A stretch of DNA of 64,000 bases from Sulfobacillus thermosulfidooxidans (lineage in GTDB: Bacteria > Bacillota > Sulfobacillia > Sulfobacillales > Sulfobacillaceae), in NCBI RefSeq assembly GCF_001280565.1, contig NZ_LGRO01000001.1, forward strand, positions 992,001-1,056,000, in the 5' to 3' direction. Shown in pieces: positions 5,423 to 13,473 of this stretch; within the stretch, counting starts at the first letter, position 1, and each line of letters starts with the position of its first letter. Made by a program: the position numbers and the translations under genes. The notes under the pieces are model-generated. The model was not told the origin of the DNA, ran no database searches, and saw nothing but the letters and a program-made list of their open reading frames with translations.

Positions 5423-7309
5423 ATGCAGGACAGACTGGACGAACAAACATTGTATTTATTTAATGAGGGCACATTAACCCAGATGTACCGGCATTTTGGC
5501 GCACAGTACTTAGATGAAAATACTGTGCAATTTGCGGTGTGGGCTCCTGCCGCGCAGCGCGTTTCCGTGGTGGGTGATTTCAACGGATGGGATCCTAAAA
5601 AGCATCCAATGAGACCCCTAGGTAATTCGGGAGTGCATGTGGCCATCATAGAGCATATAGAACCGGGAACATTGTACAAGTATTTCATTGAAAATCCTGC
5701 TCAGGGATTTGCCAAGGAAAAAGCGGATCCTCTGGCATTTGCCATGGAAATTCCGCCAAAAACAGCGTCGGTTGTTACCCGTTTAGATTATGCTTGGCAT
5801 GATGATGAGTGGATTAATGCGCGCCAAAAAACCTCATCCATGGAAAAACCCATAAGCATTTATGAAGTGCATGTGGGATCGTGGCGTAAGCATCGTGATG
5901 GCATGTCATTAAGCTACCGAGAACTCGCGGATCAACTTGTTAATTATGTGAAGGACCGGGGATTTACCCACGTTGAATTGTTGCCTATTATGGAGCATCC
6001 CTATTATGGATCGTGGGGCTATCAAACAACCTGTTATTTTTCGCCGTCGTCACGTTTCGGATCGCCGCAAGATTTCATGTATTTCATCGATCAATGTCAT
6101 CAACAAGGTCTCGGGGTTATTTTAGACTGGGTTCCGTCACACTTTGCGACGGATGATTTTGGATTAGCCGAGTTCGATGGCACTCATTTATATGAACATG
6201 CTGATCCACGGCAAGGAATCCACCCGCAATGGCATAGTTATTTATTTAACTACGGACGCAATGAAGTCCGCAGTTTTTTACTATCGAGTGCGATGTTTTG
6301 GCTGGACTATTACCATGCCGACGGATTACGAGTGGACGCGGTAAGTTCCATGCTGTATTTAGACTTTGGTCGGCAAGCTGGTGAATGGATTCCCAATCGT
6401 TATGGCGGGCATGAAAATCTTGAGGCGATTAGCTTTTTGCAGCAACTGAATCAAGCAGTCCACCAACGGTTTCCTGGGGTAGTTATGATTGCAGAGGAAT
6501 CTACGGCGTGGCCTCATGTGACAAGGGGACCGGAAGATGGCGGATTAGGTTTTGATTTTAAGTGGGATATGGGGTGGATGCATGATACGTTAGATTACAT
6601 GAGTAAAGATCCAATTTACCGTCGTTATCATCACGATAAGTTAACGTTTCGCCCCATGTATGCCTTAACTGAGCACTTTATCCTGCCCTTGTCGCATGAT
6701 GAAGTGGTTCATGGGAAGGGCTCATTAATCAATAAAATGCCTGGGGACACGTGGCAGAAAATGGCGAATTTACGACTACTCTTGGCTTATATGTATGCCA
6801 CCCCTGGTAAAAAGTTACTCTTTATGGGAGCCGAACTTGCCCAGTGGCGCGAATGGTCCCATGATCGCGAACTGGATTGGTTTTTACTGGCTGATCCTTA
6901 TCACGAAGGGATATCTCGCTTGGTAAAAGATCTCAACACGCTATATCATCAGAATCATGCTTTATTTTCTTTGGACTATGATGTGGGAGGATTCGAATGG
7001 TGTGATTTCGGTGATCGGGACAGCAGCGTGATTAGTTTCTTCCGGCACGGGGCGTATCAAGACATCTTATGCGTGTTCAATTTTACCCCCGTGCCGCGTT
7101 ATGGGTACCGATTAGGAATTTTCCAACCCGGCCAGTGGCTAGAAATCCTTAATACGGATAGTGTCTATTACGGAGGAAGTAATCTGGGAAATGGGGGATG
7201 GGTGCATAGTGACGGCCAAAGTTGGCAGGGACGGCCGTATTCTCTATCTTTAACTTTGCCGCCCCTGGGGGCTTTGTTTTTGAAGAAAGTTACCGCTGAA
7301 ACGGATTAA
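5423..7309 (+). CDS. glgB: 1,4-alpha-glucan branching enzyme
   Basis: GlgB cuts alpha-1,4 chains and re-attaches them as alpha-1,6 branches, completing the GlgE-type glucan pathway. The N-terminal CBM48 domain (VWAPAAQRVSVVGDFNGW) is followed by a GH13_9 barrel. GLRVDAVSSM carries the nucleophile Asp (about residue 305), IAEEST the acid/base Glu (about 358) and LSHDEVVHGK the third acidic residue. I chose ATG 5423, preceded by AGGTGA five bases upstream; an in-frame GTG at 5414 close behind GGAAGG is the alternative. The last 20 bases overlap the end of the convergent ThyX-like gene. About 628 residues, a normal length for the short-form enzyme. Confidence 0.95.
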   Translation: MQDRLDEQTLYLFNEGTLTQMYRHFGAQYLDENTVQFAVWAPAAQRVSVVGDFNGWDPKKHPMRPLGNSGVHVAIIEHIEPGTLYKYFIENPAQGFAKEKADPLAFAMEIPPKTASVVTRLDYAWHDDEWINARQKTSSMEKPISIYEVHVGSWRKHRDGMSLSYRELADQLVNYVKDRGFTHVELLPIMEHPYYGSWGYQTTCYFSPSSRFGSPQDFMYFIDQCHQQGLGVILDWVPSHFATDDFGLAEFDGTHLYEHADPRQGIHPQWHSYLFNYGRNEVRSFLLSSAMFWLDYYHADGLRVDAVSSMLYLDFGRQAGEWIPNRYGGHENLEAISFLQQLNQAVHQRFPGVVMIAEESTAWPHVTRGPEDGGLGFDFKWDMGWMHDTLDYMSKDPIYRRYHHDKLTFRPMYALTEHFILPLSHDEVVHGKGSLINKMPGDTWQKMANLRLLLAYMYATPGKKLLFMGAELAQWREWSHDRELDWFLLADPYHEGISRLVKDLNTLYHQNHALFSLDYDVGGFEWCDFGDRDSSVISFFRHGAYQDILCVFNFTPVPRYGYRLGIFQPGQWLEILNTDSVYYGGSNLGNGGWVHSDGQSWQGRPYSLSLTLPPLGALFLKKVTAETD

Positions 7310-8687
7310 ATTCGCTAGGGGGTGTTACGCGAATATAACGCGCGAAATCGGGCAATTGCTGTCTCAACGCTTCATACATTTCCCACGCAATTTGGCGGTA
7401 ACTGAAATGGCCTTGGGACCGACTACGGAGTTCAATAATATAGGCTGCTTCGGCAAGATCCATGCTCATCAACACTCTTCTTTTATGCGCTAAGGGCAGT
7501 AAGTACGGCAGTGAGGGAGTATCCGAATAGGTCGAGAGTTCTTCATAATACGCCGAAAGCCTTGTGATGAATTCATAATCAAGGCCGGCCTCGGTTAAAG
7601 GGGATGGGATGGAAAATTGAAGATCAGGATTAAGGGACTGTGCAATTTTGTGAGTTCGGCGGTGCCGATTAAAATCTCGAAAAGCCCCCACATCCATGAT
7701 TAAATCAAATTGCAAGGGGGCTTGGCGCAAAAGACGCAGCCATTCATCATGAGGGCCACGCACTGAAAAAACCAGTGAAATCAATTCTTGTTTCTCTGCA
7801 GTGCTTAAGGTACTAGCGAATTGGAGACAGGATCGATAAGAAGCTTGTCCAAAAGCATAGAGCAATTGCGCAATTTGGGCATCTAAAAGGGGAGCTTGAA
7901 CCGTTAATTCAACGGCTTGCGCAGGCAAAGACGGGACCTGTTTTGCTAAGGGTTCTAGAATTTTCCGCACAGCCATTAAATAGGCATCAGCTTCTGTATA
8001 TTTAACCAATGTTGGTAATACAGGATGGTTGGTTTGATACATTAAATCGACAGCGGGTTGTTCGGCAATGCTCTTTTTGAGTTCCCGTGCAATATCATGG
8101 ACCTCTGAGAAAGGCGATGCGAAAAGTCGCCGAATTTGTTGTTCTAGAACGCGGGCACTGGTGATCTGCCCCAGGCTCGTTAGAGTATTGAGCGGTAAGC
8201 AATAACGCGCAATATCTAAGGCTCTGGCATGAATGGTACGAGCATAGTTTTTTTCTGGCATATCGGACGGTCTAGGATATTGTTCGGTTAACAGGTTTGT
8301 GCCCAGCTCCTGCATCTGATGATATAAGGCCCAAAGCTTGTGTGTGGCCGTATCATAGGAGGAAGGGGCACTTGCTGGACGATAGTAGTCCGAACCATCG
8401 AAATTCTGATACCGTGTTGAACGTTCTTGTCCATCCCATAAAGGTTCATCGACAATTTCCATGGCAGCCAACAACGAAATGTCTTCTATAGCTACGGCGA
8501 CATGGGCTAAATCCGCTATGGAAGCGTGGCCATAATCAAAATAAAAGGTGTTTAGAAATTTCGCGGCCTTATCTTCTGTGAGATCTTTTAAATTATCGGC
8601 TAGTGAACGGTCTGATCGCGAATATTTGGCCATGCCGTAAGCTAGAACTTCGGGCGGAACATTTGTAACAGCATATATATGTGGCAT
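7290..8687 (-). CDS. Duplicated ThyX-like (flavin-dependent thymidylate synthase family) protein
   Basis: 465 residues, about twice a normal ThyX. The C-terminal half has the canonical ThyX signature RHRX7S at residues 341-351 (RHRRTHKIAQS), used for dUMP and FAD binding. The N-terminal half looks like a second ThyX fold (GHASIADLAH near 53, RSTRYQNF near 89, ARYCLPLNTLTSLGQITSAR near 160) but has lost RHR. ThyX makes dTMP using methylene-tetrahydrofolate and FAD; whether this two-domain form is active or does another flavin or pyrimidine reaction is unknown. AAGGGAGAG precedes the ATG. No thyA or other thyX lies in the window. Convergent overlap with glgB at its 3' end. Confidence 0.75.
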   Translation of the reverse strand: MPHIYAVTNVPPEVLAYGMAKYSRSDRSLADNLKDLTEDKAAKFLNTFYFDYGHASIADLAHVAVAIEDISLLAAMEIVDEPLWDGQERSTRYQNFDGSDYYRPASAPSSYDTATHKLWALYHQMQELGTNLLTEQYPRPSDMPEKNYARTIHARALDIARYCLPLNTLTSLGQITSARVLEQQIRRLFASPFSEVHDIARELKKSIAEQPAVDLMYQTNHPVLPTLVKYTEADAYLMAVRKILEPLAKQVPSLPAQAVELTVQAPLLDAQIAQLLYAFGQASYRSCLQFASTLSTAEKQELISLVFSVRGPHDEWLRLLRQAPLQFDLIMDVGAFRDFNRHRRTHKIAQSLNPDLQFSIPSPLTEAGLDYEFITRLSAYYEELSTYSDTPSLPYLLPLAHKRRVLMSMDLAEAAYIIELRSRSQGHFSYRQIAWEMYEALRQQLPDFARYIRVTPPSEFNPFQR

Positions 8688-10851: not shown

Positions 10852-11044
10852 CGTAAACTCCTTGGCCATGCTATTACAAATGATGCTACAGTCCATCGCG
10901 AGATACGGATGCGGATTACGAAATAACTAGATAATATTTAACTATGATATAAATTATACAGTAACTTAAGGTGACTGACTACGTTACCTACAGGTCTTAA
11001 TGAATAACGAGGTCTTGTCACTAGTAGACGCAAGGAGTTTATTC
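10852..11044. promoter_or_regulatory. Divergent intergenic region, likely LysR operator and promoters
   Basis: AT-rich stretch between the LysR start and the glycosyltransferase start. Around 10928-10962 the sequence (AATATTTAACTATGATATAA then ATTATACAG) contains several T-N11-A style half-sites with partial dyad symmetry, as LysR regulators use. No exact operator can be assigned from sequence alone. Confidence 0.35.
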
Positions 11045-11947
11045 ATGGCACGATTCATACGTTTTCATCTAGGTTCTCACCCTACCAGTCTTGATCAAGC
11101 AGTTGTGGAGCGTCTTATGCCGATAATGAAAACCTGGCGGTTAACGATACCGAAACGTTCCTGGATTCCTTCTCGTCCCTTTACCATTGCGGTGGGAGAA
11201 CATGCCCGGGTGGGGGATCTCATCGTGCATCCCTTAGGAGACATTCATACTGAGTGGCCAAATCCTGTTGGATTGGTGTGGGGCCATGAGACGTCCGCAA
11301 CCAAAAATCTTTTACGATTACCAGCGTATGCTCCCAAAGAAATGGGACTGGATGAGAATGTCTTCGCTATTACCCGGGAACTGCGGTTATCGGAAAGACC
11401 ACGAATTTTATATTTAGGGTCTTTTCAGGACGGAGCGGGATTGACGGCATTCCTGGGGGCTATGAAGGATCTTTTGACCGTGCAAGGGGAGGCGATTTTG
11501 ATTGGAGGAATAGCTGTCCGTGACCGATTAGCACCCGTTGTGGCTCGTCTAGGTTTGGCCCAACAGGTCATTTTTGCTCCTCCGTTATCGCCTGGTCAAT
11601 TATCTGGCCTGTATCATTCGGCTGACGTATTGGTGTATCCTGATCGTGATCCTGGTCAATTATACCAGTTGATAGACGTCTATGCGCACGGTCTTCCCGT
11701 AGTATTACGGGATACCCCTGAAACACGAAAGATTTGGGGATATCCCGCGCTATTAGTGTCGAGCGATGATGGTAACCAATGGGGTGAAGCGATTCAAGAA
11801 GTCATTGATAATACGCGTTTACGAGAAGTGCTGATCCGGCGGGGAATGGAATTTGCCCAGATGCATGAAACAGAGATAGTCATCACGGGATGGCGAAGTA
11901 CTATCGAAAAAATTTCGGGACAAAGCGTTGTGCTCGAATCCAATTAG
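11045..11947 (+). CDS. GT4-like glycosyltransferase
   Basis: 300 residues from ATG 11045 with AAGGAG seven bases upstream; an earlier in-frame ATG at 11000 has no ribosome site. The C-terminal half is the nucleotide-sugar-binding Rossmann domain of GT-B enzymes (RILYLGSFQDGAGLTAFLGA, LADVLVYPD-type segment, and LIDVYAHGLPVVL in place of the usual EAMAxGxPV). The N-terminal acceptor domain is short for GT4 (about 120 residues), and the classic EX7E is modified, so activity is uncertain. It probably belongs with the polysaccharide genes downstream. The next gene starts seven bases after its stop. Confidence 0.7.
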   Translation: MARFIRFHLGSHPTSLDQAVVERLMPIMKTWRLTIPKRSWIPSRPFTIAVGEHARVGDLIVHPLGDIHTEWPNPVGLVWGHETSATKNLLRLPAYAPKEMGLDENVFAITRELRLSERPRILYLGSFQDGAGLTAFLGAMKDLLTVQGEAILIGGIAVRDRLAPVVARLGLAQQVIFAPPLSPGQLSGLYHSADVLVYPDRDPGQLYQLIDVYAHGLPVVLRDTPETRKIWGYPALLVSSDDGNQWGEAIQEVIDNTRLREVLIRRGMEFAQMHETEIVITGWRSTIEKISGQSVVLESN

Positions 11948-11954
11948 GAGTGAC

Positions 11955-12551
11955 ATGATGTCGACCCTACCATGGCTGGATAATTTGATGCAACCTGTTC
12001 ATATTATGCAATATGGTCAAGGGAATCCTGCATTTATCCAACAATTTGCGGACAATGAATGGATTTTTTGGGAAATGGTGGACAAGCTTCCCGATATTGT
12101 GTGGCCATGGTTTCCCCAACATTTGCCGGTCTACGGCATTGCCCAAGAGGATTCCGCGGCACATATCTGGTTTGTAGGTGAACCTATTGGTCAGGAAGAA
12201 AGCAGTTGGCGAGATTTAGTCTTAGCCGTGGGCCGTGGGCAAAAACTATTGACGCCGATGACCGAAAACATCGTCGATAGCATTGGAGAAATTGTCCACG
12301 TTGCCGTGTTCACCACGCCAAGTTGACCTAAATGTGCTCAGGCAGTTCGCCTGATTGGTGCCATGAGTTTACGGAATCCACGCATTAACCTATTCGCAAT
12401 TGATTTGGATAAGGCGAAAGATCTCTTAAATATTTTGTCGATCCAGACAGTACCAACCTTTGCTTTTAATGAGAGTCTCATGTCCTTGACCGCTAATGAA
12501 TGGATTTTGGCACAAAAAATTTGGCAAATAGCTACGAAGCACGAGACATGA
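11955..12551 (+). CDS. AhpF-N-like thioredoxin-fold protein with in-frame TGA (candidate selenoprotein)
   Basis: Two open frames in the same phase, 11955-12323 and 12327-12551, are split by a single TGA at 12324-12326. Read through, the product is 198 residues with two tandem thioredoxin folds, as in the N-terminal domain of AhpF or a protein disulfide oxidoreductase. WFVGEPIGQE and DLVLAV match the first fold's end; VHVAVFTTPS-TGA-PKC is the start of the second. AhpF has CHNC at this point, so the TGA sits exactly where the first catalytic cysteine belongs, giving UxxC. After it come LNPRIKH-like SLRNPRINLFAID and the cis-proline IQTVPTF. A six-bp hairpin starts 11 bases after the TGA. Start ATG 11955 has AGGAGTGA upstream. 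A Cys-to-stop mutation is the alternative. Confidence 0.7.
12324..12354 (+). promoter_or_regulatory. Candidate bacterial SECIS element after in-frame UGA
   Basis: Directly after TGA (12324-12326), TCAGGC (12338-12343) pairs perfectly with GCCTGA (12349-12354), leaving the 5-base loop AGTTC. The loop begins 17 bases after the UGA and has G as its second base followed by U, the features recalled for bacterial SelB-binding hairpins (small apical loop with G near the start, short fixed distance from UGA). Whether SelB binds is inference. Confidence 0.6.
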
Positions 12552-12693
12552 ATAATCAAATATGATTTAACAACTGATGATAAATGTTTAATTGTGAAAT
12601 ACGTCGATTAATTTTTCTTGAAGAGTGGTCGTCAAATGACATTATTAAGAGTAAAATAGGGGTCAGAAATATGCAGGGTAGGAGATGTTTTCG

Positions 12694-13473
12694 ATGGTTC
12701 ATGTCACGGCCATACAACAAGTGTTGGCCGTTATTTCGGGAGTGATTGTGGGTTTCAGTTTAGGATTAATTGGCGGCGGCGGGTCTATTATGGCCGTGCC
12801 TTTGTTGCTATATTTCGTCGGCATTCATGATCCTCATTTAGTTATTGGGACCACTGCGTTGGCAGTAGCGGTGAATAGTTACTTGAATCTGATTCCTCAC
12901 TGGCGAAGCGGTAACGTCAAATGGGGGGCGGCTATTGGATTTGCTATTCCGGGTGCCATTGGAGCCTTTATCGGATCAACAATCGGCAAGATGGTAAACG
13001 GCAAAGATTTGTTGTTTTTGTTTGCCATACTCATGATTGTTGTAGCAATATTGATGCTAAAACCCAAGAAAGGTGAAAGTACGACCACCAGTTTTCATTG
13101 GACACATAAAATGTTATTGCGGGTGATTCCAGCGGGATTGCTTGTCGGATTTGTGTCGGGCTTCTTTGGCATTGGTGGGGGTTTCTTAATTGTTCCAGGA
13201 CTCATCATGTCAACCGGAATGCCCATGATTTATGCAATTGGAAGTTCATTATTTTCTGTAGGCACATTCGGGCTAACGACAGCTATCAATTACGCGTTAT
13301 CCGGTTTGGTATTATGGCTTGTGGTTGTTGAATATGTTGGTGGAGGTATAATCGGTGGTGTTTTAGGCACGCGCCTAGCCAACCAACTCAGTAAACAAAA
13401 GCGATTATTGAACTTTGTTTTTTCGGGGGTTGTGATTATCGTCGGTATTTATATGCTGACATTGAACGCCTAA
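12694..13473 (+). CDS. TauE/SafE-family anion exporter
   Basis: A 259-residue integral membrane protein with about eight hydrophobic segments. The two repeats of the TauE/SafE (DUF81) family are visible: LIGGGGSIMAVPLLLYF near residue 25 and FFGIGGGFLIVPGLI near residue 155. Members export sulfite, sulfoacetate or similar anions; the substrate here is unknown, but sulfur oxyanions would suit a sulfur-oxidising acidophile. I use ATG 12694, nine bases behind GGAG; ATG 12685 directly abuts that site. A strong hairpin follows the gene. Confidence 0.85.
   Translation: MVHVTAIQQVLAVISGVIVGFSLGLIGGGGSIMAVPLLLYFVGIHDPHLVIGTTALAVAVNSYLNLIPHWRSGNVKWGAAIGFAIPGAIGAFIGSTIGKMVNGKDLLFLFAILMIVVAILMLKPKKGESTTTSFHWTHKMLLRVIPAGLLVGFVSGFFGIGGGFLIVPGLIMSTGMPMIYAIGSSLFSVGTFGLTTAINYALSGLVLWLVVVEYVGGGIIGGVLGTRLANQLSKQKRLLNFVFSGVVIIVGIYMLTLNA

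What the first reader, a model, noticed from the sequence alone, without database searches (positions are those of the whole stretch)
11955..12551. In-frame TGA replaces the first catalytic cysteine of an AhpF-N-like redox protein: candidate selenoprotein
Two frames in identical phase are separated by one TGA only. Joined, they give a 198-residue two-fold thioredoxin protein that follows the AhpF N-terminal domain along its whole length. The TGA falls exactly on the first Cys of the CxxC motif (AhpF CHNC; here TTPS-TGA-PKC), giving UxxC. Similarity resumes at once (SLRNPRINLFAID, then the cis-Pro VPTF), with no frameshift or other stop. A selenocysteine at an active cysteine is the classical pattern; a simple nonsense mutation is less expected at that one position. 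The free-standing AhpF-N/PDO form with Sec would be new to me.
Basis: partly seen in the sequence, partly recalled or inferred. Interest (0 to 1): 0.92.

Follow-up and report, generated by a model that had tools for sequence, protein, structure and literature searches.

The report
Selenium-containing AhpF-N-like thiol-redox protein gene
An apparent premature stop in a Sulfobacillus gene is almost certainly a selenocysteine codon, so the gene makes a selenium-containing redox protein; its broad family has been on lists of known selenoproteins for about twenty years, but this divergent branch appears not to have been described.

Summary
One gene, 11955-12551, carries a single in-frame TGA at 12324-12326 (residue 124), exactly at the first position of a CxxC motif (UPKC). 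The selenocysteine reading is strongly supported. The genome encodes selA, selB, selD (itself a selenoprotein) and tRNA-Sec(UCA). Among 28 genomes with an orthologue, 23 have TGA at this codon and 5 have Cys; no other stop occurs within the matched frames. A hairpin 17 nt after the TGA meets the published bacterial SECIS model. Its stem is kept by compensatory changes, far beyond synonymous-codon shuffles (33 of 38 sequences with all five pairs; shuffle mean 5.1, maximum 13). Two genomes that lack selA, selB and tRNA-Sec have only Cys members. dN/dS is low on both sides of the TGA. The predicted structure (pLDDT 91) matches the AhpF N-terminal domain over its whole length.

The kind is not new: 'homolog of AhpF N-terminal domain (TIGR02187, UxxC)' is a listed selenoprotein family. 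This clade is a divergent subfamily (48-80 bits against TIGR02187's 185 cut-off) with one redox site, a shortened N-terminal unit and, in Sulfobacillus, conserved synteny with a glycosyltransferase and a TauE-type exporter. Likely function: Sec-dependent disulfide reductase; partner unknown.

The parts
11955..12551 (+). Complete selenoprotein CDS: 198 residues with Sec at 124 (start ATG 11955 or the adjoining ATG 11958; terminal TGA 12549-12551)
   Evidence: homologues aligned across the TGA; dN/dS 0.12 upstream and 0.18 downstream of the TGA against an 86% identical relative
12324..12326 (+). In-frame TGA = selenocysteine codon, first position of the UxxC motif (U124-P-K-C127)
   Evidence: TGA in 23 and Cys in 5 of 28 orthologue-bearing genomes; aligned to the AhpF CHNC motif and PDO CPYC
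12338..12354 (+). Bacterial SECIS hairpin: 6-bp stem UCAGGC/GCCUGA closing a 5-nt loop AGUUC, 17 nt after the UGA
   Evidence: Fold -10.1 kcal/mol; compensatory changes in 4 of 5 core pairs and 5 of 6 pairs; 33/38 TGA sequences keep all five core pairs against a mean of 5.1 in synonymous shuffles
11946..11950 (+). Shine-Dalgarno-like AGGAG overlapping the stop codon of the upstream gene; suggests translational coupling
   Evidence: Read directly from the sequence; inference
11000..11947 (+). Glycosyltransferase group 1 gene directly upstream, 7 nt from the selenoprotein start
   Evidence: Pfam Glyco_trans_1_4, 7e-13; directly upstream of the homologue in every Sulfobacillus locus and in four genus-g11 loci
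12685..13473 (+). TauE/SafE-family sulfite/organosulfonate exporter-like gene downstream
   Evidence: Pfam TauE 2.6e-50; downstream of the homologue in Sulfobacillus, in two g11 loci and, with the Cys form, in G035 of another family

Best explanation
The gene encodes a selenoprotein. The ribosome reads UGA 12324-12326 as selenocysteine because the hairpin at 12338-12354 recruits SelB with Sec-tRNA-Sec (the standard bacterial mechanism; shown here by genes and sequence, not by experiment). The product is a free-standing homologue of the AhpF N-terminal domain / protein disulfide oxidoreductase. It has two fused thioredoxin-fold units. The first has no redox motif and the second carries the only redox pair, Sec124-Cys127, with the conserved Pro167. 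It most likely works as a thiol-disulfide reductase: Sec attacks a disulfide or persulfidated thiol of a partner, Cys127 resolves the mixed selenenylsulfide, and a flavin disulfide reductase re-reduces the pair (inferred from AhpF/PDO biochemistry). The partner is unknown; a peroxiredoxin or a sulfur-metabolism enzyme are the leading candidates.
For: Sec machinery: selA 557 bits, selB 361 bits, selD 362 bits, all over their cut-offs; tRNA-Sec 64.5 bits, confirmed by ARAGORN as anticodon UCA; SelD itself has TGA in the motif U-G-C-K. Sec/Cys pairs: same codon TGA or TGC/TGT across relatives, no other stops in the matched frames. SECIS: meets the published constraints quoted in PMC13188914 (loop 3-9 nt, stem 4-16 bp, G in the first two loop positions, spacing 16-37 nt, energy at most -7.5). 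Covariation score 0.429 against 0.167 +/- 0.027 shuffled, and slid structures fall to 0.073 or less; synonymous shuffles never exceed 13 of 38 where 33 is observed. Trait linkage: genomes with a TGA member carry selA in 39 of 43 cases against 8 of 18 others, Fisher p 2.6e-4, not corrected for kinship; three of the four exceptions have selB and one of them tRNA-Sec; G010 and G019 lack selA, selB and tRNA-Sec and have only Cys members. Selection: dN/dS 0.12 and 0.18 on the two sides of the TGA. Fold: pLDDT 91.1; AhpF N-terminal domain 1zyn Z 22.6, rmsd 2.1 over 180 residues; PDO structures Z about 22. Function hint: in L037 the gene lies between a double rhodanese and a pyridine-nucleotide-disulfide oxidoreductase, behind a metallo-beta-lactamase-fold gene.
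Against: No experiment shows Sec insertion. Folded singly, the hairpin is not exceptional (z -0.7 to -1.9) and in a 48-nt stretch a competing fold is slightly better. Five of the 38 SECIS sequences miss one or two pairs. The redox partner, direction of electron flow and physiological substrate are inferred. In the window the neighbours are polysaccharide genes and an exporter, not a reductase or peroxiredoxin, so context there does not support a peroxide role.
Confidence: 0.93

Rival explanations
1. Pseudogene: the TGA is a true nonsense mutation and the downstream part is decaying.
For: The TGA would end translation in a genome without Sec decoding; open reading-frame pairs split by TGA are common in the window (14).
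Against: The TGA is kept in 23 of 28 orthologue-bearing genomes across several genera, with no second stop in the matched frames; dN/dS downstream of the TGA is 0.18; Sec machinery is complete; a covarying hairpin follows.
Confidence: 0.02
2. UGA is read as another residue (Trp or Cys), or the TGA is a sequencing error for TGC/TGT.
For: Cys is the alternative at this position in relatives.
Against: The terminal codon of the gene itself is TGA, so UGA still stops translation; many independent assemblies share the TGA; the hairpin is conserved with the TGA and degenerate in most Cys forms.
Confidence: 0.02
3. The TGA is a regulated stop with a purpose: a short form without Sec and a long form with Sec are both functional, in proportions set by selenium supply.
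For: Partial termination at Sec codons is general (established knowledge); residues 1-123 include the whole first unit.
Against: The short form would lack both redox residues and has no evident use; no evidence for it was found.
Confidence: 0.05
4. It is a selenoprotein, but it works in sulfur/persulfide or sulfite chemistry linked to the TauE-type exporter or to rhodanese and persulfide-dioxygenase-like enzymes, not as a general disulfide reductase or peroxiredoxin reductant.
For: TauE gene downstream in Sulfobacillus, g11 and G035; metallo-beta-lactamase-fold, rhodanese and flavin disulfide reductase genes around L037, and the first two around L042.
Against: The clusters differ between genera (most other loci show neither), the TauE-family substrate is unknown, and a polysaccharide locus surrounds the gene in the window.
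Confidence: 0.25

Closest known systems
'Homolog of AhpF N-terminal domain (Grx-like domain protein)', TIGR02187 / PDO_seleno_TRX, UxxC selenoproteins (Carboxydothermus hydrogenoformans; Symbiobacterium thermophilum; table entry ABB15282.1)
   Same: Free-standing two-unit thioredoxin-fold protein, Sec at the first position of the C-terminal CxxC, with Cys homologues
   Different: The window clade scores only 48-80 bits against the 185-bit TIGR02187 cut-off and the window protein matches the model only from position 73; its N-terminal unit is about 20 residues shorter than in the paralogue L054 (U124 against U144)
AhpF N-terminal domain (Salmonella 1zyn; E. coli 4o5q)
   Same: Best structural match, Z 22.6; single redox motif, in the second unit, aligned with UPKC
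   Different: No fused flavin reductase domain; Sec replaces the first Cys
Archaeal/Aquifex protein disulfide oxidoreductase (Pyrococcus 1a8l, 1j08; Aquifex 2ayt)
   Same: Same fold and size class, free-standing, best sequence match among solved structures
   Different: Pyrococcus PDO has a CxxC in each unit (alignment); here only the second unit has one, with Sec
Own-genome paralogues at C2:67613 (UPYC) and C1:1467299 (UPHC)
   Same: Sec UxxC, same SECIS position and loop pattern
   Different: They pass TIGR02187 (202 and 208 bits) and fall on another side of the tree

Membership tests
Bacterial selenoprotein | Genome encodes SelA, SelB, SelD and tRNA-Sec | tested here: met
Bacterial selenoprotein | In-frame TGA aligned with Cys in homologues, conserved across species | tested here: met
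   23 TGA and 5 Cys among 28 orthologue-bearing genomes
Bacterial selenoprotein | SECIS hairpin meeting the published model (loop 3-9 nt, stem 4-16 bp, G in first two loop positions, spacing 16-37 nt, energy at most -7.5 kcal/mol) | tested here: met
Bacterial selenoprotein | Selenium found in the purified protein at the UGA position | not testable with these tools
   Needs 75Se labelling or mass spectrometry
TIGR02187 PDO_seleno_TRX (AhpF N-terminal domain homologue) | Score over the curated cut-off of 185 bits | tested here: not met
   65.1 bits; orthologues 48-80 bits
TIGR02187 PDO_seleno_TRX (AhpF N-terminal domain homologue) | Two fused thioredoxin-fold units with the catalytic UxxC/CxxC in the second | tested here: met
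   Model pLDDT 91, Z about 22 to PDO and AhpF N-terminal domain
Archaeal-type PDO | CxxC motif in both units | tested here: not met
   The translated product has a single Cys (127) and Sec124, none in residues 1-123
AhpF (alkyl hydroperoxide reductase F) | Fused NADH/FAD thioredoxin-reductase-like domain | tested here: not met
   The gene ends after the N-terminal-domain equivalent; a TauE gene follows
AhpF N-terminal domain function (AhpC reductase) | Reduces AhpC or another peroxiredoxin | not testable with these tools
   No peroxiredoxin gene adjoins it in the window; biochemical assay needed

The most novel reading that the evidence does not exclude
The clade is a distinct selenoprotein family of Sulfobacillaceae and near relatives, with a redox-inert N-terminal unit and a dedicated partner in sulfur or persulfide metabolism (TauE-type exporter; rhodanese, metallo-beta-lactamase-fold and flavin reductase cluster in a sister genus), which would put selenocysteine into acidophile sulfur chemistry.
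Probability: 0.25. Interest if true: 0.6.

Novelty: new variant of a known kind. Interest (0 to 1): 0.42.

Why it matters
The gene would probably be split or truncated by ordinary gene calling, because its clade lies well under the cut-off of the NCBI model that covers its Sec-containing relatives (inference). Recognising it adds a divergent Sec-redoxin subfamily in acidophilic bioleaching bacteria. It also gives a clean case of Sec/Cys exchange with loss of the decoding trait (genus g4), in a protein whose only redox residues are Sec124 and Cys127.

Tried and rejected
A search of genome contigs with the single window protein found nothing and the broad alignment A1 had no stretch conserved enough; the genus-level alignment A3 gave five named loci. 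An early script read minus-strand loci in the wrong direction and is superseded; DNA alignment one search used a wrong coordinate for L025 and is superseded. The second tRNA-Sec candidate in the own genome (C1:2157494) is a tRNA-Cys. Pseudogene and reassigned-UGA readings were considered and rejected (see rivals). Papers on a Sulfobacillus selenoproteome: searches found only formate dehydrogenase (PMC4378227) and PrxU (PMC7409299); the library holds open-licence papers only.

Full report
1. Observation. Window 11955-12551 reads as one frame of 198 codons with a single internal TGA at 12324-12326 and a terminal TGA. The mechanical ORF list shows it as two ORFs of 132 and 62 aa. The product contains one cysteine, Cys127, so the motif is U124-P-K-C127. 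An AGGAG sequence overlaps the stop of the upstream gene and lies 4 nt before ATG 11955. Same-phase pairs split by TGA are not rare in themselves: 14 in the window. The case rests on homology and on the RNA element.

2. Organism and machinery. The window lies in a 3.83-Mb genome (G000). G000 encodes selA (557 bits), selB (361 bits) and selD (362 bits), each over its curated cut-off, and a tRNA-Sec with anticodon UCA. selD itself carries TGA in the motif S-G-U-G-C-K. Selenocysteine formate dehydrogenase has been reported in all Sulfobacillus genomes examined in PMC4378227.

3. Sec/Cys pairs. Searching 61 genomes with the read-through protein and 154 genomes of the class with the family alignment gives 28 genomes with a close orthologue (E below 1e-50; the next match is 1.5e-31, although the profile was made from these sequences). 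In 23 of them the codon is TGA; in 5 (G001, G004, G010, G019, G035) it is TGC or TGT. No other stop occurs within the matched frames. In the 45-sequence tree the fewest Sec/Cys changes are 4, and well supported branches force at least 3. Against the 86% identical orthologue L025, dN/dS is 0.12 upstream and 0.18 downstream of the TGA.

4. Trait linkage. Of 43 genomes with any TGA-bearing member, 39 have selA; of the other 18, 8 do (Fisher p 2.6e-4, not corrected for kinship). Of the four exceptions, G023, G028 and G036 have selB and G023 also tRNA-Sec, so a gap in the assembly is likely; only G030 (63% complete) shows neither. Conversely G010 and G019, of one genus, lack selA, selB and tRNA-Sec, and all their members of the family are Cys forms.

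5. SECIS. After the UGA lies 5'-CCUAAAUGUGCUCAGGCAGUUCGCCUGAUUGG. The stem UCAGGC/GCCUGA (12338-12354) closes the loop AGUUC, 17 nt after the UGA; the 38-nt stretch folds at -10.1 kcal/mol. The published bacterial model asks for a loop of 3-9 nt, a stem of 4-16 bp, a G in the first two loop positions, a spacing of 16-37 nt and at most -7.5 kcal/mol (PMC13188914); all are met. One sequence alone is weak evidence (z -0.7 to -1.9). Across 28 distinct TGA sequences 95.7% of cells pair, 4 of 5 core pairs show compensatory changes, the covariation score is 0.429 against 0.167 +/- 0.027 in shuffles, and sliding the partner by 1-3 columns destroys it. To exclude the coding constraint, synonymous codons were redrawn 5000 times: all five pairs are present in 33 of 38 TGA sequences, against a mean of 5.1 and a maximum of 13. 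Six Cys homologues show no such excess (22 of 30 pairs, mean 20.8). One Cys form, L028, keeps an intact hairpin, as expected for a recent Sec-to-Cys change. A covariance model of the element finds, in the whole own genome, the four TGA paralogues at E 2e-5 or better, the next match being at E 0.25; these four are among the sequences it was built from.

6. Protein. The best NCBIfam match is TIGR02187 PDO_seleno_TRX, 65.1 bits against a cut-off of 185; the orthologues scanned score 48-80 bits, while two own-genome Sec paralogues pass (202, 208 bits). phmmer aligns 'tpscpkc' with the AhpF 'lschnc' motif and with the second CPYC of PDO. The AlphaFold2 model (six sequences) has mean pLDDT 91.1. Its best matches are the AhpF N-terminal domain (1zyn Z 22.6, rmsd 2.1 over 180 residues) and PDO (Z about 22). 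The first unit has no redox residue; the UxxC lies at the start of the second unit's first helix, and Pro167 is invariant.

7. Context. Upstream is a glycosyltransferase gene 7 nt away and downstream a TauE/SafE-family gene. Where the flanks allow, this order holds in Sulfobacillus; the glycosyltransferase also adjoins the homologue in four genus-g11 loci whose motif is UGHC, with TauE in two of them; TauE follows the Cys homologue in G035, of another family. Around L037 the gene lies behind metallo-beta-lactamase-fold and double-rhodanese genes and before a pyridine-nucleotide-disulfide oxidoreductase; L042 shares the first two. These point to thiol/persulfide redox chemistry without fixing a substrate.

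8. Mechanism. Shown by sequence: a conserved Sec codon, a SECIS element, the machinery, the fold and the position of Sec in UxxC. Inferred: Sec124 as attacking nucleophile, Cys127 as resolving residue, recycling by a flavin disulfide reductase, as established for AhpF (general knowledge) and, in archaea, for the thioredoxin reductase-PDO-peroxiredoxin relay (PMC7278568). The partner is open.

9. Known or new. The family 'homolog of AhpF N-terminal domain' is listed among selenoproteins in PMC1794560 (2006; Carboxydothermus, Symbiobacterium), and as UxxC, TIGR02187, in PMC9312934 and PMC13188914, the reviews citing an earlier survey as source. The kind is therefore known. The window clade is a divergent subfamily below the model's cut-off and I found no paper describing it (open-licence papers only), hence 'new variant of a known kind', with moderate interest.

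Noticed in passing
G000 C2:67613, C1:1467299(-), C1:1247112 (loci L054, L056, L057): Three further AhpF-N/PDO-like paralogues in the same genome have in-frame TGA at UPYC, UPHC and UTRC with the same SECIS hairpin; a fifth paralogue (L055) has Cys (CRWC).
   Followed up: yes
L048, L049, L052, L053 (genus g11): A side branch has UGHC in place of UPxC, next to the same glycosyltransferase (and, in two loci, TauE) genes.
   Followed up: partly
L037 and L042: The homologue lies in a cluster with a metallo-beta-lactamase-fold hydrolase and a double rhodanese, plus a flavin disulfide oxidoreductase in L037; possible persulfide metabolism.
   Followed up: partly
G010 and G019 (genus g4): Two genomes without selA, selB and tRNA-Sec carry only Cys forms of the family: apparent loss of the Sec trait.
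   Followed up: yes
L009:1501-2436: selD of this genome is itself a selenoprotein (TGA in the motif U-G-C-K).
   Followed up: yes
window 7290-8687 (-): A 465-residue protein with two matches to the ThyX (Thy1) family, conserved in synteny in Sulfobacillus; looks like a tandem ThyX-like protein.
   Followed up: no
G011 and G035: Each has two tRNA-Sec-like matches over the Rfam cut-off; the second may be a tRNA-Cys look-alike, as in G000, or a true second copy.
   Followed up: no
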